Position numbers and translations under genes: made by a program
Notes under the pieces: generated by a model
What the model was told of the DNA's origin: nothing
The model's database searches: none
The model's input: the letters and a program-made list of their open reading frames with translations, nothing else
Shown: positions 1-17,171 of the stretch, in pieces
How positions within the stretch are numbered: position 1 is the stretch's first letter
Layout: every line of letters begins with the position of its first letter
Origin: Bordetella genomosp. 2
GTDB taxonomy: Bacteria; Pseudomonadota; Gammaproteobacteria; Burkholderiales; Burkholderiaceae_B
DNA: 64,000 nucleotides
Assembly: GCF_002261345.1 (NCBI RefSeq)
Contig: NZ_NEVT01000006.1
Coordinates: 124,001-188,000, forward strand
Reading direction: 5' to 3'

Positions 1-562
1 TGCCCGAAAGAAAATACAATGGCAAAAACAAAAGCGTCAATACGAATTTCGTCTCCGGGACGGCTTCTGCAATTAATGCGAGCAGAATGCCAAAGGCAAA
101 CGAAAATACAATTCCCAATCCTAAAAAAGTCAGCCATAAAATAGAATCGTGGATCGCAGTGTCATGCCCGTGCCATGTCAGGCCTATATACAAAAACATG
201 AACACGATCGCCGAAATACAAAACTCGACTATAGTTCTGGCGGCAAACGCATCTGCCGGCTGAATTTGCTTGTATGAAAAAAGGGACTTGTTCGCATCCA
301 CGCTATTCATCAACTTAAGCGCAATGTTCTTGAATAGCAGAAAAGGAGCGATCCCCACCAGTAGCCATACAAAGAAGTCATAGCCAATAGAAGTCGCCCC
401 ACGGAGACTGACGAGCGTCGCGAGAGCGGCCATGTGCGCCATGGGCTCGAGCACCACCCACAGAGCTCCCAGTCGCATCCTGCCAAATCTGCTGCGCATT
501 TCGCGCAGAACAAGTGCGAACACTACAGATCTTGTTATTTGAAACGGCGATCGTTGGCGCAT
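1..562 (-). CDS. kpsM: KpsM-like capsule polysaccharide ABC exporter permease, 3' end cut by window edge
   Basis: Inner-membrane permease of an ABC-2 exporter that moves capsular polysaccharide across the inner membrane with the KpsT ATPase. Translating the minus strand from ATG 562 gives 187 residues without a stop to base 1. The N-terminal part matches E. coli KpsM in my memory: LREMRSRFGRMRLGALW, then LEP, a hydrophobic helix, VGIAPFLLF, and VDANKSLFSYKQIQPADAF, followed by three more hydrophobic stretches. E. coli KpsM is about 258 residues, so the last ~70 are missing. The leader MRQRSPFQITRSVVFALVLRE has nearly the same length as in E. coli, which supports this ATG, though no Shine-Dalgarno sequence precedes it. 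It marks the cluster as an ABC-transporter (group 2/3 type) capsule. Confidence 0.9.
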   Translation of the reverse strand, partial: MRQRSPFQITRSVVFALVLREMRSRFGRMRLGALWVVLEPMAHMAALATLVSLRGATSIGYDFFVWLLVGIAPFLLFKNIALKLMNSVDANKSLFSYKQIQPADAFAARTIVEFCISAIVFMFLYIGLTWHGHDTAIHDSILWLTFLGLGIVFSFAFGILLALIAEAVPETKFVLTLLFLPLYFLSG

Positions 563-736
563 AGGAAGGGGTGAACAGGGCAGAACTGACGCATTCTAAC
601 GTATCGGTACTGACATGGCACATTCTTTTCCATTAAAATTCACGTCAGAACACATCTTTCTCCCTATAGTCATTTTTTGTTTCGTACACATGGCCTATCA
701 AGCGACGTGTATCGTATAACTGCAAAGGCCGCTTTG
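563..736. promoter_or_regulatory. Divergent intergenic region between kpsM and the plus-strand glycosyltransferase
   Basis: AT-rich, about 170 bp, between two divergent genes, so it should hold a promoter for each. I see no convincing sigma-70 pair or operator. If the glycosyltransferase used the upstream TTG at 677, the region would be 60 bp shorter. Confidence 0.4.
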
Positions 737-1783
737 ATGTTATTTTTGCGAAATCTTTTTCGGAAATCCACGGTGCGTCGCGTTGACGGAAGGTATGGCG
801 CATTGAAAGTGGCGCTTATTGCTGACGAGTTGACCACGGCTTCTCTTTCCGTCGAATGCCAGATCCGTAACTTGACGCCACAAAACGCAGTTGAAGTGTT
901 AAGAACCTGGCGGCCAGATTTGCTTTTTGTCGAGTCCGCGTGGCATGGCTATAGGAATGCATGGAAGTATCAGTTAGCTAGCTATGACGGATTTCCAAAT
1001 CGAAACAACCGCAATCTGAAAAAAACTTTGGACGCTGCGGCAGCCTTGCAAATTCCATCCGTATTCTGGAATAAAGAAGACGGAGTCCATTATGCTCGCT
1101 TTATTGATACGGCCAGTCTGTTTGAAAATGTGTTCACCGTGGATGAGGGATGTTTAGAGCGATACAAACTTGATTTGCCGTCGTACAATCATGTAGGTAC
1201 GCTAATGTTCTCGGTCCAGCCTCGATTTCACTACCTATTGGATGGCAAGCCCACGCAGCGAGGTTTTGGCTGCTTCGTGGGAAGCTATGGCACGCATGTC
1301 CATGCTCGCCGTCGCTACTGGCAGAATATGCTTTTTGAGATGGTAGCCCCCTATGGGCTCCATATATACGACCGCAACTATAGGCGTAAGGCGCAGTGTT
1401 ATCGGTATCCAGTGATGCCTGGCCTGAAAGTATATCGTGGCGTTCCCCATCCCGAGACCGCACAGGTATACAGAAGCTATCGCGTGAACCTAAATGTAAA
1501 TACAGTCGAAAACTCCAGTACAATGTATTCTCGGCGCTTGGCGGAGATTTTGGCGGTGGGGGCGGTAGCAGTTACTACACCATCGCTAGCAGCGCACCAA
1601 CTATTTTCTGATTACTGTTTCATCGTCAATACGCCCGAAGAGCTTGCTGCAGTCCTTGAGGAGGTGAAGGGTAGTGGCTATTCAAAGGCTCAAGAGCGGG
1701 CCCATCACGGTGCCGATATGATTGCTCGTCACCATACTTGGGAACAGCGGTTGGCCCAGATCGAGTGCCTAGGCCTCTTTTAG
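737..1783 (+). CDS. CgeB-like glycosyltransferase (GT-B type)
   Basis: Predicted glycosyltransferase of 348 residues; donor and acceptor unknown. Landmarks are PDLLFVESAWHG, IPSVFWNKEDGVHY, a conserved IYDRNY, and near the C-terminus NVNTVENSSTMYSRRLAEIL followed by a short GAVAVTTPS strand, the pattern of the CgeB/Glyco_trans_1_2 group. The same landmarks occur in the middle of the 1,769-residue protein at 7864-13173, so the two are paralogous. I prefer ATG 737, preceded by AAAGG at good spacing, over a TTG at 677 in the same frame. It is the only plus-strand gene in the capsule cluster and ends 9 bp from the convergent DUF6270-like gene. AT-rich like its neighbours. Confidence 0.75.
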   Translation: MLFLRNLFRKSTVRRVDGRYGALKVALIADELTTASLSVECQIRNLTPQNAVEVLRTWRPDLLFVESAWHGYRNAWKYQLASYDGFPNRNNRNLKKTLDAAAALQIPSVFWNKEDGVHYARFIDTASLFENVFTVDEGCLERYKLDLPSYNHVGTLMFSVQPRFHYLLDGKPTQRGFGCFVGSYGTHVHARRRYWQNMLFEMVAPYGLHIYDRNYRRKAQCYRYPVMPGLKVYRGVPHPETAQVYRSYRVNLNVNTVENSSTMYSRRLAEILAVGAVAVTTPSLAAHQLFSDYCFIVNTPEELAAVLEEVKGSGYSKAQERAHHGADMIARHHTWEQRLAQIECLGLF

Positions 1784-1792
1784 TATTGAATT

Positions 1793-2530
1793 TCATGCCA
1801 ACGCAGGTCTTGTGGTTTTCATCCTATTAACGAAATCTTGCACAGCCTTCAACGAAAATAAGGTGGACTCATCGTCAAAATGAAAAGGTGTTGGGGACCA
1901 GATATGGTTATCCGGGCATTTTCTCATGTTGCCATACTCAATGAATTGGGCTGATGACAGAGATTTACGTTGAACGGCAAACATCTGGTCAAACATTTCA
2001 TTAGCTTGGTCAACCATTCGAGCGTCGAACGGAACGCCGCTTTCAGTGTGATATTGCCAATAGCTCTTATTGATCAAAACTCGGTCCCTTAACCCCTGGG
2101 CATCGAGCGTCTCGATGAACTTAAACCAACCGTCTTCCCAGTGGTGCATGAAAGAAGAGCCGCCACTGGGTACGAACGTAAGTTGCGGGCTTCGACGTAG
2201 GCCCGCAGCTTTCAGTTCCAGTGAGTAGGTACAGCGGCCAAACTTATTTGCGACCAAGTCGAAACGCTCATCCACTAAGTCAATTACAATGACATCCGGT
2301 TCAATGGTACGCAATCGAGGGATGGCCTGTTTGAGAATGTCCATGGCGACTGTGCGTCGTTGAAATGGAGACTTCAGATTGGCGCTCCAATGGTCGGCGA
2401 ATGGGGAAGGGGCGAACAACGAGCCGAACGAACTGCGTGCGGAGTAAAGTAACAAATCGAAGCTGCTACGATCCATTTTATTGAAGATGTCTCGCGAAAC
2501 GCAGCTTCCAAAAATGGCGACCTTCATCAT
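1793..2530 (-). CDS. DUF6270-like capsule-locus protein
   Basis: Uncharacterised cytoplasmic protein of 245 residues. It opens with MMKVAIFGSCVSRDIFN, a beta strand followed by GSC-S/T-RD, as in the DUF6270 family found in polysaccharide loci. A later strand, DVIVIDLVDERFD, and a C-terminal HFDDES resemble the catalytic blocks of SGNH-type hydrolases or acyltransferases; this is an inference from layout only. There is no signal peptide or membrane segment. I chose ATG 2530 because AAGGA lies 7 nt upstream; the frame stays open to 2584 but without a binding site. Last gene of the leftward capsule transcript. Confidence 0.6.
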   Translation of the reverse strand: MMKVAIFGSCVSRDIFNKMDRSSFDLLLYSARSSFGSLFAPSPFADHWSANLKSPFQRRTVAMDILKQAIPRLRTIEPDVIVIDLVDERFDLVANKFGRCTYSLELKAAGLRRSPQLTFVPSGGSSFMHHWEDGWFKFIETLDAQGLRDRVLINKSYWQYHTESGVPFDARMVDQANEMFDQMFAVQRKSLSSAQFIEYGNMRKCPDNHIWSPTPFHFDDESTLFSLKAVQDFVNRMKTTRPALA

Positions 2531-2608
2531 TTCTATATCCTTCCATAACTTGACAATCAACTTCGATGGAAGCTTCCAAGTCAAGTTTATTCACGTCGTC
2601 TATCATTA

Positions 2609-4543: not shown

Positions 4544-4633
4544 GTTTTTCCATAATTCAAAAAAGCGAAACGTGGGGCGATCGCAAACTCGGAAAAAAGC
4601 GCCTTGTGGCAATTGGCTGAGAATTCTCGTTTT

Positions 4634-6316
4634 CTACGTGCCTTCAAAACTAATAATGGAAGTTATATCGTTTTCAGTTTGTGCAGGGAGACCGATTTCG
4701 ATTACTTGAGAGGCAACATACTTATTGGCTAGAGTAGAAACAACAGAATATACCTTAGAGCCGGCGACCCCGCATTTTACGCTGATGTTAAGCGGAGCAT
4801 CACTCTTAAAATCCATCAGCATGCAACGATTTGAAAGCTTCGAGGTGACCCGAACCTGGGTACCGACAGTCTCAATATTCTTATGTGCATCTACATGCCA
4901 AAGCAACTTGACGCCGCGTGCTTGGCCATCAGTACTGCGAATGATGTCCCTCACTCTAATGAAAGCATGCTCGAAGGCAATATGCCTATTCATTACTAGA
5001 TCTTCAAACCCGGAGAAGGAAAAAGTGAGAGCTTGCTCACCCGTATGAGGACGCTCATCAACGAGCCACCAGCCATTTTTAATTTCCTCCCAAGGCTTAT
5101 ACCGTGCTCCATCTACGATCGCCACGTTATGTGCATCGCGTGATCGGACATAGCGGCGAATAGGATCGGATTTGTTGTAGTTGTACATACCGGAATCTAT
5201 CAGCCAATCTTCCCCATATGCATAGATGATAAGATGACCTTCATCTTGCTGCCTATGATATTGGCTCAAAGGACCCGCTTTGAAGATCGTATGTGTGACC
5301 TGCGTAAAATCGGCTGGGCCAGCCCATTTATCCCGATGTATGGCATATCCGGATGTCGGGAAGACTTGGTAAGTAGATGTTGGACGTACCCCTGACTTCC
5401 CTTTCGTGAAGACGTAGAGAAATTCTCGATACTCCTTGGTATGCCCCAATATTTCTCGAAATGAATCCGTAGGGCGTAAAAGCTCAGAATCGCCGATTAT
5501 GGGCGTAAATCCGTCAGGGCGAAGTATATGAATAATATAATTCATAATCAATTTCGCCTTCGACATGAACTCTGTGGCCAGGGTGCCGAGATCATGCTGA
5601 TCGAATTCCTGAACAATGGAGATAAATACTTTAAATACGAAGATGTGATAAGCGGGACTATTTTCTACGTGGACCCCATCCTCTGTATAGGCAAAATGTA
5701 GCTCAGAGCGCAGCCGGTCTAACGCTATTGCGCGCCATTGATTTGCATCCTTCCAAGCGGCTGCGCCCACCGTACCCAATAGCAACAGCACACGTGCCTG
5801 CTCCAACCCATGGTTAGTGTGTTGAGAATAAAAATCATTTCTCATCAAAATCGAGCCATGCTTTTCCAGCAGCTCAACAGCTTGTGGGCAATTCTGGGCG
5901 AACGATTCTTCTGAGCCGATGGCGACCGAGTGCGCGTAGAACCACAGCACGTGCTCAGCTCGCAATGCTGTGCCGTGATCATGCCAAACAAATTCATTCA
6001 GATCGGTGCCACCAGGCTCAGTCGTCAGGAATTTGGCGCACCAGTGGTTGACCAGTTGAGCGCCAATCTCAAGGGCCTTTCTGTCACCAGATTGAGCATG
6101 ATATGCAATCAAATAACCCAGAGCCGAAAGGGTGCCCCATCGCCACTGCCATGAGCGATTATGTACTGGATTTTGATCCCAATCCAAGCGATATGGGACA
6201 GACGGAAATGGGCCCAGTTGAATTTTTTTTTCGGTGACGATCTCCCGCCCACGTGCCGCAAAATCTGTATTCTTCTTTAAAAGAGAGAGCCTTTTTTCAA
6301 TAAAGTCCAAGCGCAT
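4634..6316 (-). CDS. Heparinase II/III-like polysaccharide lyase, first of two
   Basis: About 560 residues with the architecture of the heparinase II/III superfamily: an N-terminal alpha/alpha-toroid (RWGTLSALGYLIAYH, WHDHGTALRAEHVLWFY, NHGLEQARVLLLLG) and a C-terminal beta-sandwich with QYHRQQDEGHLIIYAYGEDW, SGMYNY and RDAHNVAIVDG. These proteins cleave uronic-acid polymers by beta-elimination or serve in polysaccharide synthesis; the substrate here may be a ManNAcA-containing polymer (inference from wecBC). No signal peptide is visible, so it is predicted cytoplasmic, unlike most secreted lyases. The start is uncertain: ATG 6316, or TTG 6361 that overlaps the upstream gene; neither has a clear ribosome site. 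A run of nine A lies early in the reading frame. Confidence 0.75.
   Translation of the reverse strand: MRLDFIEKRLSLLKKNTDFAARGREIVTEKKIQLGPFPSVPYRLDWDQNPVHNRSWQWRWGTLSALGYLIAYHAQSGDRKALEIGAQLVNHWCAKFLTTEPGGTDLNEFVWHDHGTALRAEHVLWFYAHSVAIGSEESFAQNCPQAVELLEKHGSILMRNDFYSQHTNHGLEQARVLLLLGTVGAAAWKDANQWRAIALDRLRSELHFAYTEDGVHVENSPAYHIFVFKVFISIVQEFDQHDLGTLATEFMSKAKLIMNYIIHILRPDGFTPIIGDSELLRPTDSFREILGHTKEYREFLYVFTKGKSGVRPTSTYQVFPTSGYAIHRDKWAGPADFTQVTHTIFKAGPLSQYHRQQDEGHLIIYAYGEDWLIDSGMYNYNKSDPIRRYVRSRDAHNVAIVDGARYKPWEEIKNGWWLVDERPHTGEQALTFSFSGFEDLVMNRHIAFEHAFIRVRDIIRSTDGQARGVKLLWHVDAHKNIETVGTQVRVTSKLSNRCMLMDFKSDAPLNISVKCGVAGSKVYSVVSTLANKYVASQVIEIGLPAQTENDITSIISFEGT
6223..6231 (-). repeat. Homopolymer A9 tract in the coding strand of the heparinase-like gene
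   Basis: Nine consecutive A on the coding strand (T on plus), read as Glu-Lys-Lys-Ile near residue 45 from the TTG start. Runs of this length are prone to replication or transcriptional slippage; a one-base change would truncate the protein almost completely. Confidence 0.7.
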
Positions 6317-6350
6317 ATTATATGGTTGCCGGCGCACGTGATGCCTATAA

Positions 6351-7826
6351 TTAGAATTCAATTTTGAAAGGAACAGTTTTATCGCCGCTTTGAAGGAACC
6401 GCAATTTGCGCGTATGTATATACTCGAAGCGGTTGGTGCCTACGTAGATCTGTTCGGCGGTATCCCATTTTCCCTGGTGTGCAGGCGCCGAGATTCGAGC
6501 AATAAGACGGCCTTCACAGATAAGATCCGCGAAGTTGCTCGTCACTTTAGGCTCTATCTTCGGATTCAAGATAAAAGTATGGATGCTGGTAAACTGTTTT
6601 TCTGAGCTACTTTGGATCGTATCCTCAACGTCCAATGTATTATTGGATAGGCGAAATTGTCGCTTAATTTCGTAGCCTTTTATCCGTTCGTGCTTAGCTA
6701 GCAGGTGGAATCCTGAAGCAGTTTCTTCCCATTCCACCAAAGCACTGCCTTGCGCGTATTCGGTTCGGTCACAAAACGATTCGCCCATTATTGTGACCGT
6801 ATTGTGCGCATCCGCGTCGCGTAGCTTCGTATCGAGATTATTTCTGTAGACAGTATATCCAACGTCGTCGAATAGCATCTTTCCATTAATTTCCAAGCAG
6901 AATGACAATTCGTCATCCTGCTTATGATTGTGCGAATTCCACGCACACGTGGCCGCAAAATGTAAATTTGTATTGGCGGTAGATTTGCGTTTGTAGAAAA
7001 ACATTCCGCCAGCACAATAGAGGCGATTTCCCTCTTTTCCTATTTGCTCTCGCACCTTATCTGATTCTTTAATTTCAGTGCATGCTGAGAGAATGGAATT
7101 GTTGGGCTGTCTGAACGAATCTCCAAGTGGAAAATATTCTCCGCAATCGCGCAATGCAAAGGCCAGCAACTGCCGTGTGTTGGAAGTCAGCGCGGGTGCG
7201 TAAGCACTATTTCCCTTTAGCGAGGTATAGTGCTTGAGAAAATCTCGCGCTAACGGATAGTTATGTTCTTGATAAGAAACCGAATGTTCGCGTGTAATGC
7301 CGGTAGGGTCGAACATTTGCTTGAGTGTATTGATGCCTCGCTCCAAAATCTTTTCCTTATTGATTTTGGGCCTATAGCGATGATCTGCCTCATATAAGTC
7401 TAGTAGAGCGATATCTGCCATTAATCCATGGTTGTGGCCAGCACGATACATCGTCGGACTTTGTAAGTTGGCAATATCCCTGATAATGAGTCGATTGCAC
7501 AATCCGACACCTGGCACATCATCCTTTGATTCGTAGTATCGCCTGAACGTAATTAATTGCTGTAAACGTATAGTCGCAGTATGATCGCCACGTAAATTAT
7601 TATAATACGGGTTGTTTATTTCCTTCACGCAGTGGAAATTATAGAAACTACGAAGTACGGTGAGTAGGTTCTCTCCCAGTATTTCCGGGTTGATCCAACG
7701 AAGACTCATGAAGTGATGTTGCCATGATTTCGACTGGAACGGATCCATTCGCCACTCGATAGGAAGGTGAAGGGTGACATTATCGAATGCTTGATGACGA
7801 ACGACAGCCAGTTTTTCATTGATCAT
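6351..7826 (-). CDS. Heparinase II/III-like polysaccharide lyase, second of two
   Basis: 491 residues, second heparinase II/III-family protein, upstream of the first. The toroid half contains PTMYRAGHNHGLMADIALL and TREHSVSYQEHNYPLARDF; the beta-sandwich half contains WNSHNHKQDDELSFCLEI, DDVGYTVYRN and RDADAHNTVTIMG, with conserved His, Tyr and Glu/Asp positions typical of the family. No signal peptide. It is clearly diverged from its neighbour, so the pair may cleave different linkages or act as a heterodimer (inference). Start ATG 7826 lacks a recognisable Shine-Dalgarno; it follows the 1,769-residue gene by 37 bp and is probably cotranscribed. Confidence 0.75.
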   Translation of the reverse strand: MINEKLAVVRHQAFDNVTLHLPIEWRMDPFQSKSWQHHFMSLRWINPEILGENLLTVLRSFYNFHCVKEINNPYYNNLRGDHTATIRLQQLITFRRYYESKDDVPGVGLCNRLIIRDIANLQSPTMYRAGHNHGLMADIALLDLYEADHRYRPKINKEKILERGINTLKQMFDPTGITREHSVSYQEHNYPLARDFLKHYTSLKGNSAYAPALTSNTRQLLAFALRDCGEYFPLGDSFRQPNNSILSACTEIKESDKVREQIGKEGNRLYCAGGMFFYKRKSTANTNLHFAATCAWNSHNHKQDDELSFCLEINGKMLFDDVGYTVYRNNLDTKLRDADAHNTVTIMGESFCDRTEYAQGSALVEWEETASGFHLLAKHERIKGYEIKRQFRLSNNTLDVEDTIQSSSEKQFTSIHTFILNPKIEPKVTSNFADLICEGRLIARISAPAHQGKWDTAEQIYVGTNRFEYIHTRKLRFLQSGDKTVPFKIEF

Positions 7827-7863: not shown

Positions 7864-10800
7864 TTAGTTTGATGCGGTAATGAATAATTCCAGTTCACGC
7901 TGAATTGTGCGTGCAAAATTCAAGTGATTGCTTATCCGTTTGCTGGCAGCGAGTGATTTTTCTAGAAATTCGGTTGGATGATTGAACGCGTGCTCGATCG
8001 CATTCGCGAGGGATGCAGCGTCTTCCGCTGGGCACATATAGCCTTCCTTTTCGGAAAAGAATTCGCTAACGGCAGCCACGTCTGACGTGATCGGCACCAA
8101 TCCGCTTGCCATAGCTTCGTCTCGCGAAACCCCTTGAGTGTCCATACGAGTAGGGCAAAGAAGAATGCCGTATCCCTTGTGTTTTTTCGAAATTTCCCGG
8201 TGAGTTAGAAATTTCTTGGTAAGCGTGACATTGCTGAAACTAGCAAGAGGCCTCGTTGTATCGTCATACAATTCGCCATCCCCGCAAAGTTCGAAATGTA
8301 AATTCTCGAAAAATGGTTTTTTCGACAACGCAAGAATGGCGTTAACTGTTAGGTCATTTGCGTAAGTGCGGCCGGAGTATGGGCGGATTGATAGTATTTT
8401 TGTACGATCGGCCGCTGTTTTTTGAGAGTAGGTGAATATTGTGTTGTCGACAAAATTTGGAATTACCTGGAATTTGTCGTGTGCAAGTGATACGCCGATA
8501 TCTTGCTCAGTAGTATTTTTGAGCCAATTCGAGACAAACACGATTGACAGATTCTTGCTGGGATGACTAAGTACTGTGCGCCAGAATGACTTCCGGTTGT
8601 CGCTCAACTTTTTCTTGCGGGCCACTTGCTCCGGTGTCATATCCACAAATTCATATGCACGTCGAGGCCATAGTTGAATTTCGGAACCGTGAGCCCATAC
8701 CGTCACCTTGATCGTGTCGAGAAATTCTTTGAGCACATTCCACATATTCGTATCCAATATGTGGACCAGAACATGTTTGTAACGGCCAGATTTGAGAGTG
8801 TTGCGCAGCAGCGTGGCATCGCCTGACGCAACATCTATATTCTCGAACTCGCGATAGGGTTGGCTGGGTTGACTGGTGATGCGAAAGATCTCAACTGGAT
8901 GGCCTTCCCGGACATAGGCTCGGACTCTCGTATGCAGGAAGCCATAGCGATATAGATCATCATAGGCAGGATACTGCTTGGTAAGCACCAGGATAGGCGA
9001 GCGTCCGGCGATGACGGCCGGCTTCTCGCCATGTGTACCGAGCACCAGTTTGTGGATTTTAATGTCCGCCGCTCCCAGAACCCGAAGGCCAAAGCGGATG
9101 TAGACGCATTCGTTCGGGATGGCCAAGGCATGAGTACCACTGGCCCCCATCATGGAGTGCGAGATCTTCTTGCCGTCCTTGTCCTGAAATTCGAAGACGG
9201 TCCTGACGTCACCAGGATCATCGCAGACCAGTTGAAACTGGCTATTGAGGACCATGTTGATATCTTCTCGCCGATACGCAGTGCGCACATACATATAGGC
9301 GTGCTTTTCGGGCGGCAAGCGCGACGTGATTCGAAGGGCGTTGCCATTCATCTTGAGGGTGATCAGCTTGGATGCTGGCGGCACAATTGCTTCTGCCAGC
9401 TCGGCGGCTGATATGGAAGGCAGGTCATCGTCCGAATCGCCATTCAGTGTTTCAGCAGGAACCATCGATTCCGCCAGCGGAGCGAGATCGCGCACCAATG
9501 ACACCCCGCCTAGCGCGAACTTGAGGTCCCTGACTAGAGCAATAGACTCGTCCGGCGCGTCGGCGCCGCTGGCGAGATAATTGAATTCGTCGATAGCCAA
9601 CGTATTGCGCTGTTCTGTCGTCGCGCCGTCGGCGTTCGTAAGCCACGCTGTGAGTTGGTGGTCATTCACCGTGGTAATGCGTACGGCAGCGGCGCGCAGC
9701 GGAAGCTCTTTCATGAACTTATATTGTTGGCCGTCATTGCGCAACGAGCTCTGACCCGCCTCGTATCGATATTGGGCTGCTTTGCCATATGCATCGGCGG
9801 CGGAACAATAGGTAGCTGCCCAAGCCAGATCGTCGGCGTAGTGTTCGCCATAATAATCTTGTGGGTGCATCAGCCCCAGCAATTCCAACTGGCTGGCATT
9901 GGTGCGAATCGCCGCAATCAGCGATTCGGCCGAATCGTGGTGACTGATTCGAGTATCTGTCCGGTCAATTTCTGTCATAGACAGGGTAGTCAGCACGAAT
10001 AAGCGGCAGCCTGGATGCTTCTGGCGGCGCAAGCCGTCTGCCAGCGTACGCAGCTCCGCTTGATTGTTTGCTGTTGCGACAAACCCAATTCCGGGAATCT
10101 GGCTGATGTAGCTAGTGTTCGAGAGTTTCGCCCTGATATAGGCCAGTCGGTGCCTGTACGTATGCTCGGCCATGACCTTGCGGAGACCTGCGAGGCGAAA
10201 CTTCCGATACATAAGTTCGTCGCCACATAGCTCGCGTACTCTGTTGTCGATCTGATCCGCGCTATCTGAAGAGATCACTAGGTCACCGAACAGCAGGCGC
10301 ATGCCACGCGAGAAGTTGCTGACGACGACTGTATTAGACGCCAGTAGTTCGAACACCCGGCGTGCAAACATTGTTTGCGACTGCTTGATGGTGTTCATAT
10401 TGATGCCATATCGATAGCCCTTATAGGCGCGATCGATTTCATCGAACTTCAGGGTACCCAGGATATATCGGCTGTACTTTTCCGGAAACTGATAGTGCGG
10501 ATGCGGTTTCTCGTAGTTGCGGTCGTAGATCTCGACGGGACGGAATTGCTGCACGGTGTCGATCAACGCAGCGAAATCACGTTGGCGTTCCGGGTAGCGT
10601 AGGTAATACGAGCCGGCGAAGTTGAAGGCGTCCTTTCGGTCGTAGATCTCTATGGGATTATGCGTCGCAGGTTGGGCAGCAAAGGGCAGAAGATAAACCC
10701 GATTGTGTCCAAGGATCTTCTTGTATTTTGGAATGCAGTCAATATCGGTAGTGAACACGTGGTCCACTAGCGAAGCCAATTCGATGAACGTGCTGAAGTG

Positions 10801-13173
10801 GACCGGGTCCTCTTTATTCCAGAACATGCTGGGAACTTGATTGGCCTTTGCCCATTGCAGCAATGCCCGAACTTCCTCGGTGCAGTTGCTGACCTTGCGC
10901 GCCCAAAGATCTTCCACACCCTTCCAGGCCGATTCGATGAAAACAAGGTCAGGCTTGAATGCTTCGATTTCTTGCTGCCAGCTTTCCGGACGCAGTTGTA
11001 GCAAGTCGCATTCTGGCGCATAGGAATGGAACGTGAATTCATCCATGATTGCCGCGATGCGGGTTTTGGCGGCCTGTTCCCCAATCGTGACGGCGGGTTG
11101 GCTGACCAGCATGGTCGGCGACTGGGGGGGGCGTATGACAGGCCTGCTTGGCGCTGCGGTAGTAGTGGCCTGTCCTTGAGCTGATAGCTTGCGCTGTTTG
11201 CGTTCGCGACGTGCCTTTGCTTCGCGGCGGATGCGCATCAGATCAGAGGGGAGCCTGGAGAAAGCAGACCAGGACTTGAAACCATGTAATAGCGCGTACC
11301 CAAGCTGGAACGACTGGGTGTTGCGGGTTTGCTCTACTTGATGCAGCGCCTGTTCTTTTTCATGCTGCAGGTTGCGTACGCGACGCTCCAAATGGCGGAT
11401 CTTTCCTTCAGCCTCTTTCTCCCGGCCCTGGGCATCTCGATATTGACCGAGCGCGTCCCGGTATTTGAGTTGTGCGTCCTTTAACTGTGTGGACACAGTG
11501 GTCAGTTCCATCTGCGCACGGGCGAGCTTGTCCTGCAGCTCTTTGGCCTGTGCCGCTGCCCGGGTTTGGGTTTGCTCGTTCTGGGTGCGAACTTGTAGTA
11601 GTTGCGCGTTGAGTGTCTTGAGTGACAGTTCCGCCTGGCGATGCTGGCCAGCCAGTTGTTCTCGGGCTGTGCGCAGCCCTGTTACTTCCGTTCGCAGGGC
11701 CGCCATTTCTGTTTGCAGCATAGCCAGCTGCTTTTCAGATTGGACTTTGTCTGCTTCCAGCGATGCGAGCCGTTGCGCCGCTTGTTGCTGATCTTGTTCG
11801 TATTGAGCGCGCAGAGCGGCGTACTCCGCGAGCCTTGAGTCCAGGGATACTCGCAGTTCTTGAATGCGCTGCTCGAACTGGGTCCTTTGGGTGTGGGTAG
11901 CCGTCTCGCTGGCGTGAAGTTGCTGTGCGGCCTCTTCGCGCGCCGTTTGCGCATCCCGCAAGGCCTCGGCCGCCTGGGCTTCCAGTTCCCGTGCCCGGGC
12001 TTCCAGGTCCCTAATGCGTGACTCGAATTGTTCCCGTTGAACTTTGGCCGCCACTTCGCCAGCCAGCAGGCTCTGCTTCGCGGCATCTCGAGCGTTTTCG
12101 GCGTCGCGCGCATCTCGCTGGGCATCCGCCGCGCGGCGCTCGAGCTCCTGGATACGCAGGTCGCGTTCGAGTTTTTCGTGGCGCAGCACTGCGATCTGCT
12201 GGACTTGCTCCAACTCGAGAATGCGGGATTGCGCCTGCACCTGGGCAACTGCCTGGGCCGCCTGGTCGGCGGCGGATTGGCGAGCCTGGAGTTCAGCCTT
12301 CAGCTCGGCGATCTCTTGCTGGGCCGCAGCTTCCGCATCTTTCTGGGCGTGTTGAACGGCTTCGAGCTGTGCGCGCAGGGTGGTTGCTTGCGATTCATGT
12401 TCGGCTTGCAGGCTGTCCAACGCCGCCAGCCGCTCCGTGGCGTCGTCGTACTGGGCCTGCATGGCCAGGAGCTGCTCATGCGCGGCGTGGAGCTTGTCCA
12501 CGGCGGCTTGTTCGGCGTCTTTAAGTGCAGCTTCCAGGTCTTTGACCAGGGCGTCCGGCCATGTAGTCGTGGCGGGGGTGCGTGCCAGCACCTTCTTGCG
12601 CGCTTTGCTGACAAACGCGATGGCGTCGCCGAAGACACGGGTTTCCTGGGTATCGAAATGACGTCCCAGGTGGCGTGCCGGCTCACGCACGAAAAATGTA
12701 TGGCGGGCGCGGATGGTGTCTTGTACGCCCAACGGCCACAGGGTGATCAGCCTGCCTTCGGGCTTCAGCTTGCGGTAGGCGAGTTCGATCAACTCGCGCG
12801 GCTTGCTCGCCTGGGCAATGCTCTCGGTCAGGATGATGGTGTCGAAGCTGCGGTCGATGAGAGAGGGCACTTCATCCAGGTTGCCTTCATGAAGCGTCAC
12901 CGCGCGCTGCACCTGCGCGGGTTCCTGGCCGATGAAAGCGCGCGCCTGTTTATAGACGACAGGGTCGCTGCACAAGCCTACGACGGTCTTGCCATCACGA
13001 GCCAGCAGGATGAGCGCGGCTGCCTGGCCGCAATCTGCTTCAAGTATGTGGTCGCCCTGGACCTGCTCGCAGAGCCACGCCAACCGGTCCTGGGCCTTCT
13101 GCATGAGGTCCGTGCCCAGTTTGCCGGCGTACGCTTCCCATCCTTGTTGCTGCATCGTAAGTATGGCTGACAT
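7864..13173 (-). CDS. Giant methyltransferase / coiled-coil / multi-glycosyltransferase fusion protein
   Basis: 1,769 residues. Approximate order: class I SAM methyltransferase-like domain (1-200; ILEADCGQAAALILLARDG, then FDTIILTE and LKPEGRLITLWPLG); a ~400-residue heptad-rich, Ala/Gln/Glu-rich coiled coil (210-615); a basic linker; a CgeB-like glycosyltransferase (700-1015; FKPDLVFIESAWKG, MFWNKEDPVHF, NTIKQSQTMFARRVFELL); a GT2-like segment (1030-1215; HPQDYYGEHYADDLAWA); a beta-rich segment (1240-1385); and a GT4 domain (1390-1769; ILSIRPYSGRTYAND, FELCGDGELYDD, DEAMASGLVPITSD). The layout recalls WbdD, where a methyltransferase plus coiled coil terminates and measures O-antigen chains; a similar capping or length-setting role joined to polymerisation is inference. 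The 5' part is GC-rich and the 3' part AT-rich. Start ATG 13173 is only ~22 bp past a terminator. Confidence 0.8.
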   Translation of the reverse strand: MSAILTMQQQGWEAYAGKLGTDLMQKAQDRLAWLCEQVQGDHILEADCGQAAALILLARDGKTVVGLCSDPVVYKQARAFIGQEPAQVQRAVTLHEGNLDEVPSLIDRSFDTIILTESIAQASKPRELIELAYRKLKPEGRLITLWPLGVQDTIRARHTFFVREPARHLGRHFDTQETRVFGDAIAFVSKARKKVLARTPATTTWPDALVKDLEAALKDAEQAAVDKLHAAHEQLLAMQAQYDDATERLAALDSLQAEHESQATTLRAQLEAVQHAQKDAEAAAQQEIAELKAELQARQSAADQAAQAVAQVQAQSRILELEQVQQIAVLRHEKLERDLRIQELERRAADAQRDARDAENARDAAKQSLLAGEVAAKVQREQFESRIRDLEARARELEAQAAEALRDAQTAREEAAQQLHASETATHTQRTQFEQRIQELRVSLDSRLAEYAALRAQYEQDQQQAAQRLASLEADKVQSEKQLAMLQTEMAALRTEVTGLRTAREQLAGQHRQAELSLKTLNAQLLQVRTQNEQTQTRAAAQAKELQDKLARAQMELTTVSTQLKDAQLKYRDALGQYRDAQGREKEAEGKIRHLERRVRNLQHEKEQALHQVEQTRNTQSFQLGYALLHGFKSWSAFSRLPSDLMRIRREAKARRERKQRKLSAQGQATTTAAPSRPVIRPPQSPTMLVSQPAVTIGEQAAKTRIAAIMDEFTFHSYAPECDLLQLRPESWQQEIEAFKPDLVFIESAWKGVEDLWARKVSNCTEEVRALLQWAKANQVPSMFWNKEDPVHFSTFIELASLVDHVFTTDIDCIPKYKKILGHNRVYLLPFAAQPATHNPIEIYDRKDAFNFAGSYYLRYPERQRDFAALIDTVQQFRPVEIYDRNYEKPHPHYQFPEKYSRYILGTLKFDEIDRAYKGYRYGINMNTIKQSQTMFARRVFELLASNTVVVSNFSRGMRLLFGDLVISSDSADQIDNRVRELCGDELMYRKFRLAGLRKVMAEHTYRHRLAYIRAKLSNTSYISQIPGIGFVATANNQAELRTLADGLRRQKHPGCRLFVLTTLSMTEIDRTDTRISHHDSAESLIAAIRTNASQLELLGLMHPQDYYGEHYADDLAWAATYCSAADAYGKAAQYRYEAGQSSLRNDGQQYKFMKELPLRAAAVRITTVNDHQLTAWLTNADGATTEQRNTLAIDEFNYLASGADAPDESIALVRDLKFALGGVSLVRDLAPLAESMVPAETLNGDSDDDLPSISAAELAEAIVPPASKLITLKMNGNALRITSRLPPEKHAYMYVRTAYRREDINMVLNSQFQLVCDDPGDVRTVFEFQDKDGKKISHSMMGASGTHALAIPNECVYIRFGLRVLGAADIKIHKLVLGTHGEKPAVIAGRSPILVLTKQYPAYDDLYRYGFLHTRVRAYVREGHPVEIFRITSQPSQPYREFENIDVASGDATLLRNTLKSGRYKHVLVHILDTNMWNVLKEFLDTIKVTVWAHGSEIQLWPRRAYEFVDMTPEQVARKKKLSDNRKSFWRTVLSHPSKNLSIVFVSNWLKNTTEQDIGVSLAHDKFQVIPNFVDNTIFTYSQKTAADRTKILSIRPYSGRTYANDLTVNAILALSKKPFFENLHFELCGDGELYDDTTRPLASFSNVTLTKKFLTHREISKKHKGYGILLCPTRMDTQGVSRDEAMASGLVPITSDVAAVSEFFSEKEGYMCPAEDAASLANAIEHAFNHPTEFLEKSLAASKRISNHLNFARTIQRELELFITASN
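11124..11131 (-). repeat. Homopolymer C8 tract in the linker of the fusion glycosyltransferase
   Basis: Eight C on the coding strand, read as Arg-Pro-Pro-Gln, at about residue 682, exactly between the coiled coil and the first glycosyltransferase domain. In this sequence the frame is intact. A one-base slip would leave a methyltransferase/coiled-coil protein without glycosyltransferases. Confidence 0.75.
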
Positions 13174-13291: not shown

Positions 13292-14563
13292 TCAGGCCGT
13301 GGGCAAGCCTACTACGTCGACGACATGCAGGCCCTCGCGCTCGGGCCAGGTGATCTCGGTGAACTGGCCATGCTTGACAAGTACGGCGATTACGTCAGCA
13401 TCGGCCAGGGCTTCATCGAGCGTGGCCAGGCGGCCACGCTTGAGCGTCGCCGGCAGCTTCTCGATGTAGGGTTCGACATAGAGCACGTCGCACGGCACCT
13501 GCTCGCTGATGTCCTGTGCGATGTGCAGGGCAGGGCTCTCGCGCAGGTCATCGATGTTCGGCTTGAAAGCCAGGCCAAGCAGCGCGACCTTGATTTTTTC
13601 CGGCGCGGTTCCACGGGCCTCGACTTGGCTGATTGCGGCCTTGATCTGCGCCGCGACCCAGTGCGGCTTGCTGTCGTTGACCTCGCGGGCGATACGGGTC
13701 AGGCGGGCCTGTTCGGGGGTCTTGTTGACGATGAACCACGGATCCACGGCGATGCAGTGTCCACCGACGCCGGCGCCCGGCTGCAGGATGTTGACGCGCG
13801 GATGATGGTTGGCCAGCTGGATCAGTTCCCAGACGTTGATCTGCAGCTTGTCGCAGATGAGGGAAAGTTCGTTGGCGAACGCGATATTGACGTCGCGGAA
13901 CGCATTTTCCGTCAGCTTCGACATTTCGGCGGTGCGCGCATTGGTCTCGAGCAGTTCGCCCTTGACGAAGGTGCGGTAGACCTCCTTGGCCTTCTCGGCC
14001 GAGATGGCGTTGATGCCGCCGACGATGCGGTCATTTTCGACCAGCTCGCGGACGACCTGGCCGGGCAGCACGCGCTCGGGGCAGTAGGCGACGTAGATGT
14101 CGCTGTCGGTGCTGCCTTGCAGCGGCAACTTCAGGTCGGGGCGCAGTTCGGACAGCCATTGGACCATCTGCTCCGTAGTGCCGACCGGCGAGGTCGATTC
14201 CAGGATGACGATGTTGCCCGCTTTGAGCACCGGGGCGATGGCTTCGATGGCGGCCTGGATATATGACAGGTCGGGCTCGTAGTCGCCCTTGAACGGGGTG
14301 GGGACGGCGATCAGGAAGGCGTCGGCGGCTTCGGGCTTGGTGGTGGCTCGCAGAAAGCCCTCTTTGACTACCGACTGGACGATTTTTTCCAGGCCGGGTT
14401 CGACGATGTGGATGGCACCCCGGTTGATGGTGTCGACGGCGTGCTGGTTGATGTCTACGCCGATGACCTTGACCTGGCGGGAGGCCAGCATGGCCGCGGT
14501 CGGCAGGCCGATGTAGCCCAGGCCGATAACCGAGAAGGTGGGAGAAGTCATGTTCGAGCTCAT
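13292..14563 (-). CDS. wecC: UDP-N-acetyl-D-mannosamine dehydrogenase
   Basis: Cytoplasmic NAD-dependent enzyme that oxidises UDP-ManNAc twice to UDP-ManNAcA. 423 residues, the usual family length. Visible: N-terminal Rossmann motif [49 protein letters not shown] with the catalytic Lys/Asn block, and [13 protein letters not shown] with the catalytic Cys. The ATG overlaps the wecB stop as ATGA, so translation is probably coupled to wecB; that matters because wecB is frameshifted here. Downstream lies a strong terminator. Among UDP-sugar dehydrogenases the pairing with WecB favours ManNAc as substrate. It would supply ManNAcA for the capsule polymer. Confidence 0.9.
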
Positions 14564-15706
14564 TTCTGGGTCTGCGAGGATTGGAAGTGTTTCAAGAGCG
14601 CCTGGACAATGCGCTGCGAGGCCTGGCCGTCACCGTAGGGGTTATGGGCATAGGCCATTTTCTGGTACGAGATGTCGTTGTCGGTCAGGTCGGAAACGGC
14701 CTGGACGATGCGTTCGGTGTCCGTGCCGACCATGCGCACCGTGCCGGCCGCCACGGCTTCGGGGCGCTCGGTGTTGTCGCGCATGACCAGCACTGGCTTG
14801 CCCAGCGAGGGGGCTTCTTCCTGGATGCCGCCGGAATCGGTCAGGATGATGAAGCTCTTGCCCATGAAATACACGAACGGCTCGTACTCCAGCGGTTCGA
14901 TCAGGTGCACGTTCTCCAGGCCCTTGAGCAGGCGGTTGACCGGCTCGCGGACATTCGGATTCAGGTGCACCGGATAAACGAAATGCATATCCGGATAGCG
15001 CTGGGACAGCTGCTGGATGGCGCGGCAGATATTTTCGAAGCCGTTGCCGAAATTCTCGCGCCGATGGCCGGTGATCAGGACGATGCGATTATCGCCAGTC
15101 AGGTACGGATATATCGCTCTGCGAGATCGCGCTGCAGTTCGGCATTGGCGTCCACTTTGGCCTTGACCGTAAGCAGCGCGTCGATGACGGTATTTCCGGT
15201 TACCAGGATGGCGCTTTCGGGTTTGCTTTCGCGCAGCAGGTTCTGGCGCGACTGTTCGGTGGGCGCGAAATGCAGGCTGGCCAGGTTGCCGGTGAGCTGC
15301 CGGTTGGCCTCTTCGGGCCACGGCGAGTAGATATTGTGTGTACGCAGCCCTGCCTCGACATGGCCGATCGGCACGCGGGCGTAGAAGGCGGCCAGCGAGG
15401 CGGCCAGCGTGGTCGTGGTGTCGCCATGGACCAGCACGTAGTCCGGCTTGAAATCGTCGAGTACGCCGCGCATGCCTTCCAGTACACGCGCCGTGATGCT
15501 GTGTATAGATCCTGCCCCGGACGCATGATGTCCAGGTCGTACTGGGGCGTGATGGCAAACAATTGCAGTACCTGATCCAGCATGTGGCGGTGCTGGCCGG
15601 TAACGCAGACGCGCGCCTCGAAGTCGCCGTGGGCATTCAGCGCTGCGACGACGGGAGCCATTTTGATGGCCTCTGGTCGGGTCCCGAAGACTGTCAGGAT
15701 TTTCAT
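14560..15706 (-). pseudogene. wecB: UDP-GlcNAc 2-epimerase, broken by two frameshifts
   Basis: WecB interconverts UDP-GlcNAc and UDP-ManNAc, the step before wecC. The protein can be followed through three frames: [18 protein letters not shown] to [10 protein letters not shown]; then [19 protein letters not shown] through [18 protein letters not shown] and [10 protein letters not shown] to DLAERY; then [20 protein letters not shown] to [12 protein letters not shown] and the end. The joins lie at about 15499-15505 and 15109-15114. Each is explained by one extra dinucleotide (CA, then AT on the coding strand); removing both gives 380 residues that line up with E. coli WecB without gaps. All catalytic blocks are otherwise preserved, so the damage is recent or an assembly error. 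Start ATG 15706 has GGAGA upstream at rather long spacing. Confidence 0.85.
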
Positions 15707-16142: not shown

Positions 16143-17165
16143 CTAGGGGGGAAGCGGCGCAGGCGAGCCGGCCTCGGGACGCAGGAAATAAAGTTGCTGC
16201 CAATCGTCGAGCTGGGTCCGGATAATGCCGCTGAACAGGTCGTCCAGCTCCCGCGCGAGGCGAAGCTGCCCGGCGTCGTCGCCAGCGGACGGGATGGGCC
16301 GGTCCTCGAGGATGTGCAGCTCGAAGCGGGCGCCTTTGCTGCGGCGCAGGTAGACGGGCACCAGCGGCGCGCCGGTGGCGGCCGACAGGCGTATGGCCAG
16401 GCTGAGGTTGCTGCCGTAGGGCAGTTCGCGGCCGAAAGTGGGGAAATACACTTGGCGGCCGCGGGCTTCATCGAGGTGTATCAGTACTGAACCGCCCGGT
16501 TTGCGCAAGTGCTCGACCAGTTGGCGGGCCGCCTTGAGGCCGGGTTCCAACACGGCGGCGCCGTGTTTGCCGCGCAGTTTTTCGCTGAGGCGTTGGCGGA
16601 AGCGGTTCGGCAGGCGGCGGCTGATGGTCATGCCGGGAGAACGGATGATGCGCATCAGGCACATGCCGAGCAAGTCGCCCAGGTTGCCGGTGTGCACGGA
16701 TACGAAAATGCGCGACGTCGGCTCGGTTTGCAGTTGCCGCAGGCGCTCGGCGGGCAGGGCGGTGACCCGGCCGCCGTCCCAGATGCGGTCCATGACCAGG
16801 GTTTCCAGCAGGGCACGGCCGGCATTGCGGTGCAGGCGCTGCAGCAACTGGTCGATTTCGGCGCCGGCCAGGTTCGGCGCTACCAGAGCCAGTGCCTGGC
16901 GCGCCTGGGCTTCGGCGTTTTTCCTGGCCTGGCCGAGGTAGCGCCCGCGCAACGCCCCAAAGGAGGAGCACATGCCGACAGGCAGGCTGCGGAACAGGTA
17001 GTAGGCGCCAAACTCGCCCGCGCCCGCCAGCGGCTCTTCCAGCCAGTATTTGCGCCAGCGCCGCAGGCTCCCGGCGTCGCGCCAGTCCGGGAGCAGGGCG
17101 GGCGCGTCGGCCGCCACAGCCGCGGGCGGCTTGACGCGGGGAACGTTGCGCTGGCGGCGAGCCAT
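16143..17165 (-). CDS. LpxL/HtrB-like acyltransferase of the capsule lipid module (WcbS-like)
   Basis: 340 residues, lysophospholipid/lipid A acyltransferase superfamily. The catalytic His block appears as VSVHTGNLGDLLG (about residue 157), a variant of H-GN-E with Asp in place of Glu. Other landmarks are ISRRLPNRF, GGSVLIHLDEARG and TGAPLVPVYLRR. Such enzymes move an acyl chain from ACP or CoA to a sugar or amine at the inner membrane. It follows the PLP enzyme by 6 bp; the trio PKS, PLP enzyme, acyltransferase matches the wcbR-wcbT-wcbS group of the Burkholderia pseudomallei capsule locus as I know it. Substrate not determined; probably part of lipid anchor or acyl decoration synthesis. Confidence 0.7.
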   Translation of the reverse strand: MARRQRNVPRVKPPAAVAADAPALLPDWRDAGSLRRWRKYWLEEPLAGAGEFGAYYLFRSLPVGMCSSFGALRGRYLGQARKNAEAQARQALALVAPNLAGAEIDQLLQRLHRNAGRALLETLVMDRIWDGGRVTALPAERLRQLQTEPTSRIFVSVHTGNLGDLLGMCLMRIIRSPGMTISRRLPNRFRQRLSEKLRGKHGAAVLEPGLKAARQLVEHLRKPGGSVLIHLDEARGRQVYFPTFGRELPYGSNLSLAIRLSAATGAPLVPVYLRRSKGARFELHILEDRPIPSAGDDAGQLRLARELDDLFSGIIRTQLDDWQQLYFLRPEAGSPAPLPP

Positions 17166-17171
17166 GTCTGG

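What the first reader, a model, noticed from the sequence alone, without database searches (positions are those of the whole stretch)
7864..13173. Methyltransferase, ~400-residue coiled coil and several glycosyltransferases in one 1,769-residue chain
Order: SAM methyltransferase, long coiled coil, CgeB-like GT, GT2-like segment, beta-rich segment, GT4. In WbdD/WbdA O-antigen systems a methyltransferase joined to a coiled coil caps the chain and acts as a molecular ruler, with polymerase domains on a separate protein. Here cap, ruler and polymerase would sit on one chain in a capsule locus. That would be a new single-protein way to set capsule length; the function is inference.
Basis: partly seen in the sequence, partly recalled or inferred. 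Interest (0 to 1): 0.75.

Follow-up and report, generated by a model that had tools for sequence, protein, structure and literature searches.

The report
Capsule enzyme with built-in coiled-coil ruler
One large bacterial protein joins a methyltransferase-like domain, a very long coiled coil and sugar-chain-building enzymes inside a capsule gene cluster; the one-chain layout is already known from O-antigens, but finding it, and split-up versions of it, in capsule clusters suggests a testable answer to how such capsules get their length.

Summary
In detail: 7864-13173(-) is one intact 1769-codon frame: methyltransferase fold (1-204), coiled coil (217-623), amphipathic basic stretch, CgeB-like GT, GT2-like segment, beta domain, GT4. 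The claimed novelty does not: WbbB (O12) and Klebsiella O7 ORF6 already put terminator, coil and polymerase on one chain. New is the setting, a KpsMTEDCS-type capsule locus, where a 2025 review calls length control unsettled. In relatives the same GT core comes with a methyltransferase and a coil fused, split in two, or in three genes: both in 19 of 26 core loci against 0 of 10 control Kps loci (shared ancestry not corrected). Coil length is 412-419 residues in four orthologues although its sequence is only 38% identical. An E. coli Kps methyltransferase-coil gene varies in length almost only in its coil (7 alleles). Against: this protein's methyltransferase lacks canonical SAM-binding residues in all four orthologues (yet is conserved), KpsT has no cap-binding module, no cap chemistry is known, seven core loci lack the pair, and wecB is broken in this assembly. 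Best reading: WbdD/WbbB-like ruler-terminator logic in Kps capsules, cap activity unproven. New variant of a known kind.

The parts
7864..13173 (-). whole gene, 1769 aa
12562..13173 (-). residues 1-204, class I methyltransferase fold (Methyltransf_11), non-canonical motif I
   Evidence: Pfam 4.4e-10; Foldseek to solved methyltransferases E 2.7e-7 (low-confidence model)
13018..13047 (-). residues 43-52, ILEADCGQAA, position of SAM motif I; A46-A52 invariant in 4 orthologues
11305..12525 (-). residues 217-623, long coiled coil (proposed ruler)
11188..11319 (-). residues 619-662, conserved motif QLGYAL...LPSDL followed by a basic stretch, proposed membrane-binding amphipathic helix
   Evidence: 65-75% identity in 621-660; hydrophobic moment up to 0.56 and, further on, net charge up to +8 per 18 residues
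10114..11067 (-). residues 703-1020, CgeB-like glycosyltransferase
   Evidence: Pfam Glyco_trans_1_2; 74-86% identity in orthologues; core model mean pLDDT 86.6
9424..10113 (-). residues 1021-1250, alpha/beta segment resembling GT2, no conserved acidic pair seen
9004..9423 (-). residues 1251-1390, beta-strand-rich domain
   Evidence: secondary structure of model
7867..9003 (-). residues 1391-1769, GT4-type glycosyltransferase with invariant D-x7-E
13292..14563 (-). WecC, UDP-ManNAc dehydrogenase
   Evidence: NF008286 3e-199, above its cut-off
14596..15706 (-). WecB, UDP-GlcNAc 2-epimerase, broken over three frames in this assembly; no other copy found in the genome
6351..7826 (-). heparinase II/III-like protein
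4634..6361 (-). heparinase II/III-like protein with N-terminal domain
1793..2584 (-). DUF6270 protein
677..1783 (+). stand-alone CgeB-like GT, 31-32% identical to residues 704-1014
1..565 (-). KpsM-like ABC transporter membrane part, runs on into the bases left of the window (limit on the right approximate)
   Evidence: 66% identity to the KpsM-like protein of G172

Best explanation
The protein is a membrane-associated capsule polymerase with its own chain-length gauge. Inferred mechanism: the amphipathic, basic stretch after the coil holds the C-terminal glycosyltransferases at the inner membrane, where the CgeB-like GT and the GT4 extend a ManNAcA-containing chain on a KpsS/KpsC-made lipid primer. 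The coil (about 407 residues, about 60 nm at 0.148 nm per residue, a recalled value) holds the methyltransferase-fold domain away from the growing end, so only chains that reach it are recognised and stopped before export by KpsMT. Relatives seem to do the same with other cap enzymes or with the parts on separate proteins. Shown: domain order, coil, locus, intact frame, co-occurrence of methyltransferase and coil with this polymerase, conserved coil length. Inferred: membrane contact, capping, ruler action. In this protein the cap domain is either a methyltransferase with an unusual SAM pocket or a binding-only domain.
For: Architecture and coil. Kps-type locus. Modules travel together in different arrangements: a methyltransferase(-like) domain plus a coil of at least 100 residues in 19 of 26 loci with a whole core, against 0 of 10 Kps loci without it (my count; Fisher 7.7e-5, not corrected for shared ancestry; 8 of 11 against 0 of 10 among core loci with KpsC, p 0.001). 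Cap type swaps: Methyltransf_11 fold, FkbM, and a third domain that 6 of 10 members link to Methyltransf_24 at E <= 1, best 2.3e-9. The third type keeps E-x-G-S-G-x-S and an acidic residue after the next strand in 10 of 10; of 6 FkbM proteins the motif pattern was found in 3, seen by eye in a fourth that lacks its N-terminus, and not found in 2. In the one-chain cases read, the methyltransferase lies at the coil end opposite to the anchor motif or the polymerase. Coil length 416/412/412/419 with 38% identity to the query. MT dN/dS 0.14 between the closest pair.
Against: Canonical SAM residues missing in all 4 orthologues. MT is less constrained than the GTs (dN/dS 0.14 against 0.02 for CgeB and 0.065 for GT4). 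KpsT is 217 aa, matched as ATPase only, without a cap-reading module. 7 of 26 core loci lack the pair: G074 keeps only a truncated remnant; G071, G190, G419 and Acinetobacter show no methyltransferase with the probes used (the last and G190 near contig ends); the Betaproteobacteria MAG shows no coil protein (contig edge); G120 has only 82 predicted coil residues. Methyltransferases could decorate internal residues. wecB is broken in this assembly. KpsC/S family is absent from 6 of 8 genomes tested, so the pair is not tied to that primer. The methyltransferase nature of the third domain type rests on a weak profile match. No polysaccharide structure known.
Confidence: 0.5

Rival explanations
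1. Internal decoration: the methyltransferase-type domains modify repeat units during synthesis and the coil merely tethers enzymes into a complex; length is set elsewhere (KpsE, export rate).
For: FkbM and Methyltransf_24 enzymes methylate sugars in many contexts (recalled); KpsT has no cap-binding module; four core loci show no methyltransferase with the probes used.
Against: Does not explain a coil of 412-419 residues with diverged sequence, the methyltransferase at the far end of the coil in the one-chain cases read, nor E. coli alleles that differ in length almost only in the coil.
Confidence: 0.25
2. Pseudo-enzyme ruler: in this protein the methyltransferase fold no longer methylates; it binds the chain end or a partner at the tip of the coil and stops polymerisation without chemistry.
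For: Motif I ADCGQAA and C/S after beta-2 in 4 of 4 orthologues, yet under purifying selection; 18 of the first 20 residues invariant.
Against: Some active methyltransferases have deviating motifs (recalled); the model is too weak to judge the pocket.
Confidence: 0.15
3. Scaffold only: the coil oligomerises the polymerase and the N-terminal domain is a vestige.
For: Coils usually oligomerise (recalled); coil-core proteins without a Pfam methyltransferase match exist (L043:14675-19315, L050:8928-12728).
Against: The genomes of both (G134, G150) also encode an FkbM-coil protein in the same locus; dN/dS of the MT is 0.14.
Confidence: 0.1

Closest known systems
WbbB, Klebsiella O12 O-antigen (single-chain polymerase-terminator with ruler coil)
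   Same: Terminator at the N-terminus, coil, two polymerising GT modules on one chain (PMC11231755 passages).
   Different: Terminator is a beta-Kdo transferase, O-antigen ABC transporter; here a methyltransferase fold, a Kps capsule locus and other GT modules.
ORF6 of Klebsiella O7 (methyltransferase-kinase-CBM-coil-2xGT2)
   Same: N-terminal methyltransferase, central coil, C-terminal polymerase modules in one chain.
   Different: Has a kinase and an Ig-like module before the coil and GT2 modules; shown to add methyl phosphate. Here no Pfam kinase match, CgeB-like GT and GT4, no proven cap.
WbdD/WbdA, E. coli O9a
   Same: Methyltransferase at the far end of a coil, amphipathic end near the polymerase.
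   Different: WbdD also has a kinase; the polymerase is a separate protein; the transporter reads the cap.
WsaE, Geobacillus S-layer glycan
   Same: N-terminal methyltransferase plus two GT domains; 2-O-methyl cap.
   Different: The passages read name no coil; [quoted passage not shown]
Putative methyltransferases with coiled coils in E. coli group 3 kps clusters
   Same: Methyltransferase-coil gene directly after kpsE; coil-length variation mentioned in print (PMC13171606, two passages seen).
   Different: Separate from the polymerase; another methyltransferase type; [quoted passage not shown]

Membership tests
Coiled-coil terminator/ruler proteins (WbdD, WbbB, O7 ORF6) | Extended coiled coil | tested here: met
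   residues 217-623 (matrix recalled); helices 207-356 and 365-636 (low confidence)
Coiled-coil terminator/ruler proteins (WbdD, WbbB, O7 ORF6) | Terminator-type domain at the coil end away from the polymerase | tested here: met
   methyltransferase fold 1-204, GTs 703-1769; position only, not activity
Coiled-coil terminator/ruler proteins (WbdD, WbbB, O7 ORF6) | Terminator with intact cofactor-binding residues | tested here: not met
   motif I ADCGQAA, no acidic residue after beta-2, 4 of 4 orthologues. For this reason not filed as a member; 'works like' is kept
Coiled-coil terminator/ruler proteins (WbdD, WbbB, O7 ORF6) | Membrane-associated amphipathic region next to the polymerase | tested here: inconclusive
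   hydrophobic moment up to 0.56 and basic stretch, conserved motif
Coiled-coil terminator/ruler proteins (WbdD, WbbB, O7 ORF6) | Transporter ATPase carries a module that reads the cap | tested here: not met
   KpsT 217 aa, ATPase matches only
Coiled-coil terminator/ruler proteins (WbdD, WbbB, O7 ORF6) | Cap on the non-reducing end; length follows coil length | not testable with these tools
   needs polysaccharide chemistry
Kps (ABC-transporter) capsule locus | KpsM, T, E, D, C and S-type genes together | tested here: met
   by similarity: Capsule_synth above its Pfam cut-off for both KpsC and KpsS, whereas the NCBIfam equivalog cut-offs were not reached
Class I SAM-dependent methyltransferase (Methyltransf_11) | Fold / profile | tested here: met
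   40.5 bits, cut-off 21.2; Foldseek
Class I SAM-dependent methyltransferase (Methyltransf_11) | GxGxG-like motif I and acidic residue after beta-2 (motif recalled) | tested here: not met
GT4 retaining glycosyltransferase | GT-B fold and E/D-x7-E motif (motif recalled) | tested here: met
GT2 glycosyltransferase (segment 1021-1250) | Conserved DXD-type motif | tested here: inconclusive
   no acidic pair conserved at the one candidate place looked at, one Asp in 23 of 26; the segment was not folded or searched alone

The most novel reading that the evidence does not exclude
Kps-type (ABC-transporter) capsules, for which no terminator was seen described, have their own ruler-terminator system: a cap enzyme on the tip of a coiled coil, with interchangeable caps (Methyltransf_11 fold, FkbM, Methyltransf_24-like, perhaps sulfotransferase) and freely fused or split parts, used by several Proteobacteria including E. 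coli group 3 capsules; in the window's lineage the cap enzyme has become a non-canonical, possibly chemistry-free, stop domain.
Probability: 0.4. Interest if true: 0.82.

Novelty: new variant of a known kind. Interest (0 to 1): 0.58.

Why it matters
How ABC-transporter capsules get their length is described as presumed and in need of further investigation (PMC12220298, passages), and the H. influenzae b capsule is said to have no chain-terminating residue (PMC11231755). If the coil modules found here set length, the ruler mechanism extends from O-antigens to Kps capsules. Seven natural E. coli alleles whose methyltransferase part is 94-99% identical without gaps while the coil part runs from 419 to 520 residues would let the idea be tested on existing isolates.

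Tried and rejected
Rejected: (1) 'First single-chain cap-ruler-polymerase': precedents WbbB and O7 ORF6, and WsaE without a coil named. (2) 'All Kps loci carry such a pair': 0 of 10 control loci. (3) 'All relatives use the KpsC/S primer': PF05159 absent from 6 of 8 genomes tested. (4) Chance helix or low-complexity stretch instead of a coil. (5) Decaying domain: dN/dS 0.14.

Led nowhere: the solved-structure search with 3 sequences of the C-terminal domain of the split proteins gave only weak hits that look like chance, mostly ferrochelatases; with 10 sequences, weak O-methyltransferase hits (best E 0.029), and 6 of 10 members match Methyltransf_24 at E <= 1, best 2.3e-9; hhalign of that domain against the E. 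coli methyltransferase found nothing (1.2% probability). Structure search of the core listed GT4-type matches; model residues 1-690 were barely tested. One search was wasted by a wrong threshold. A literature search on the locus type found no paper. The WbbB paper (PMC5321029) and an O-antigen review are not held and were not read. Papers on terminators or rulers in capsules were sought (listings read): beyond the sentence of PMC13171606 none was seen. The likeness of the PKS and aminotransferase genes to wcb genes is recalled.

Limits: the 26 loci come from few genera and are not independent. Control loci were chosen by hand, one or two per genus, from 67 genomes with KpsC; one of the ten (G127) showed only KpsC in its 40 kb; methyltransferases other than the four probe types would be missed there, coils of 90 residues or more would not. 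The coil matrix is recalled. Several loci end at contig edges. The window's organism was not identified. Left out of the 26 core loci: G162, G167, G548 (partial cores), a second, partial core of Limnohabitans, a second core of G134, and hits to the CgeB domain alone. In G188 the FkbM-coil protein lies in two ORFs and was counted as present. The anchor motif pattern was sought in 19 proteins and found in 15; the Herbaspirillum coil protein was not among those sought.

Full report

Where it lies. To the left of the window follow, on the same strand, KpsT-, KpsE-, KpsD-, KpsC- and KpsS-like genes (Pfam Capsule_synth above its cut-off for the last two, NCBIfam equivalog cut-offs not reached), with KpsM across the window's edge. 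Next to the gene are WecC and WecB (UDP-ManNAcA supply), two heparinase II/III-like proteins and a DUF6270 protein. It is a Kps-type, ABC-transporter capsule locus. WecB is broken over three frames in this assembly and no second copy was found; the neighbouring PKS also lies in two frames, which may mean sequencing errors.

Orthologues. Among the 268 genomes of the family, 4 including this one have the N-terminal domain at E <= 1e-12, fused to coil and core in each. In the four, the coil region is 416, 412, 412 and 419 residues long although 38% identical to the query's, while the CgeB-like domain is 74-86% identical without a length change. Conserved length with diverged sequence is what a spacer would show. 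The methyltransferase domain is 57-60% identical to the query's and under purifying selection (dN/dS 0.14 between the closest pair), though less so than the CgeB domain (0.02) and the GT4 (0.065).

The methyltransferase. The place of SAM motif I reads L(E/D)ADCGQAA in all four, and the residue expected to be acidic after beta-2 is C or S. Aligned to the solved methyltransferase 3sm3, two glycines and that acidic residue are the ones replaced. So the canonical SAM residues are missing, but consistently, in a conserved domain. It may bind SAM unusually, or it may be a binding-only domain.

Swapped and split relatives. Loci with a whole core were collected from the family (19 genomes; two partial ones left out), the order (2 more; one partial left out) and named species (5): 26 loci. 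Their N-terminal parts differ. An FkbM-type methyltransferase, coil and core are fused in Stutzerimonas (1868 aa) and in one of two core genes of G134. Coil and core without a Pfam methyltransferase occur in G134 and G150 (the G150 core is itself split), and G150 has a separate FkbM-coil gene in the same locus (740 aa); G188 has one too, in two ORFs. In G136, G097, G117, G193, G077, G100, G120 and Herbaspirillum the core stands alone, and a neighbouring gene encodes a coil and a C-terminal methyltransferase-like domain, with an anchor-like motif before the coil where this was sought and found (L045, L046, L052-L054). In G132, G118, G326 and Limnohabitans coil and methyltransferase(-like) proteins are separate genes near the core. 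The C-terminal domain has E-x-G-S-G-x-S in 10 of 10 sequences, and 6 of 10 match Methyltransf_24 at E <= 1, best 2.3e-9; its being a methyltransferase is therefore likely, not shown. By this reading 21 of 26 loci have a methyltransferase, and 19 of 26 have both it and a coil of at least 100 residues outside KpsE (my count). The exceptions are G074 (a 272-aa remnant), G071, G190, G419 and Acinetobacter without a methyltransferase found, the Betaproteobacteria MAG without a visible coil protein, and G120 with 82 coil residues. G419's core carries a coil of its own (28-180). In G192, G194 and G195 the coil-methyltransferase gene stays between kpsE and wecB while this core is absent or, in G194, replaced by a shorter, 28% identical protein.

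Control. Ten KpsC-bearing loci without the core, from the same family, searched in 40 kb each, show 0 of 10 such pairs; one (G148) has a protein with 136 coil residues and no hit to the methyltransferase probes, and one (G127) shows only KpsC. Fisher's test gives 7.7e-5, or 0.001 for 8 of 11 core loci with KpsC. These numbers ignore shared ancestry, and the control loci were picked by hand. KpsC/KpsS (PF05159) were found in 2 of 8 genomes tested and not in G136, G097, G120, G077, G118 and G326, so the pair also serves loci with Kps transporter genes but another, unknown primer.

An independent case. E. coli plasmid pEC81-2 carries a 912-aa methyltransferase (Methyltransf_24, 5.4e-26) with a coil at 300-795, directly after kpsE in the kpsD-M-T-E order of group 3 clusters; two genes annotated as capsule biosynthesis proteins lie on the far flank, where KpsC/S would be. 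The gene matches 17 of 5426 E. coli genomes. Seven alleles were read: the methyltransferase part (285 aa) is 94-99% identical without any gap, the coil part is 419 to 520 residues, the end part is 112 residues and 90-93% identical in five of the six compared, 104 residues and 57% in the sixth. [quoted passage not shown] On another plasmid, at the same place, a protein annotated as sulfotransferase has a coil at 320-470 (no Pfam support).

How it most likely works. The polymerase end sits at the membrane and extends the chain; the coil keeps the stop domain about 60 nm away; a chain that reaches it is recognised and stopped, then exported. This is the WbdD/WbbB logic in a Kps capsule. Shown: parts, order, locus, co-occurrence, coil length. 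Inferred: membrane contact, recognition, stopping. Differences from the known systems: no Pfam kinase match, KpsT without a cap-reading module, a non-canonical methyltransferase.

Known or new. Chain-length control in ABC-transporter capsules is called presumed and in need of further investigation in a 2025 review (PMC12220298, passages). No paper proposing a terminator-ruler for Kps capsules was seen. I rate it a new variant of a known kind, with a testable extension to an open question.

Noticed in passing
window 14596-15706 (-): wecB, the only UDP-GlcNAc 2-epimerase copy found in the genome, is broken over three frames; intact copies exist in relatives. Either a sequencing problem or a strain that cannot make UDP-ManNAcA this way.
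   Followed up: partly
window 16143-26169 (-): Lipid A-type acyltransferase, class II aminotransferase and a type I PKS (in two frames) beside the capsule genes; relatives of the aminotransferase recur in many of the loci examined. Reminiscent of wcb genes of other capsules (recalled); perhaps they make a special lipid anchor.
   Followed up: partly
L045, L046, L052, L054, L055, L099: Loci with Kps transporter-type genes whose genomes show no KpsC/KpsS-family protein (PF05159 absent from 6 of 8 genomes tested): transporter-dependent capsules with an unknown primer.
   Followed up: partly
control loci G205, G148, G006: Proteins of 871-1196 aa near KpsM/T with a second KpsC-like domain (32-35% identity), perhaps another polymerase or a Kdo-type terminator.
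   Followed up: no
L139:13199-14962 (+): Plasmid-borne E. coli kps locus with a protein annotated as sulfotransferase carrying a coil (320-470) at the place of the methyltransferase-coil gene: possibly another cap type.
   Followed up: partly
L133 (G195): Capsule locus with KpsMTE, coil-methyltransferase, wecB and wecC genes but no large polymerase gene after wecC, where relatives have one.
   Followed up: no
window 2609-4612 (-): 667-aa protein with no Pfam or NCBIfam match; by eye it recalls asparagine-synthase-like proteins.
   Followed up: no
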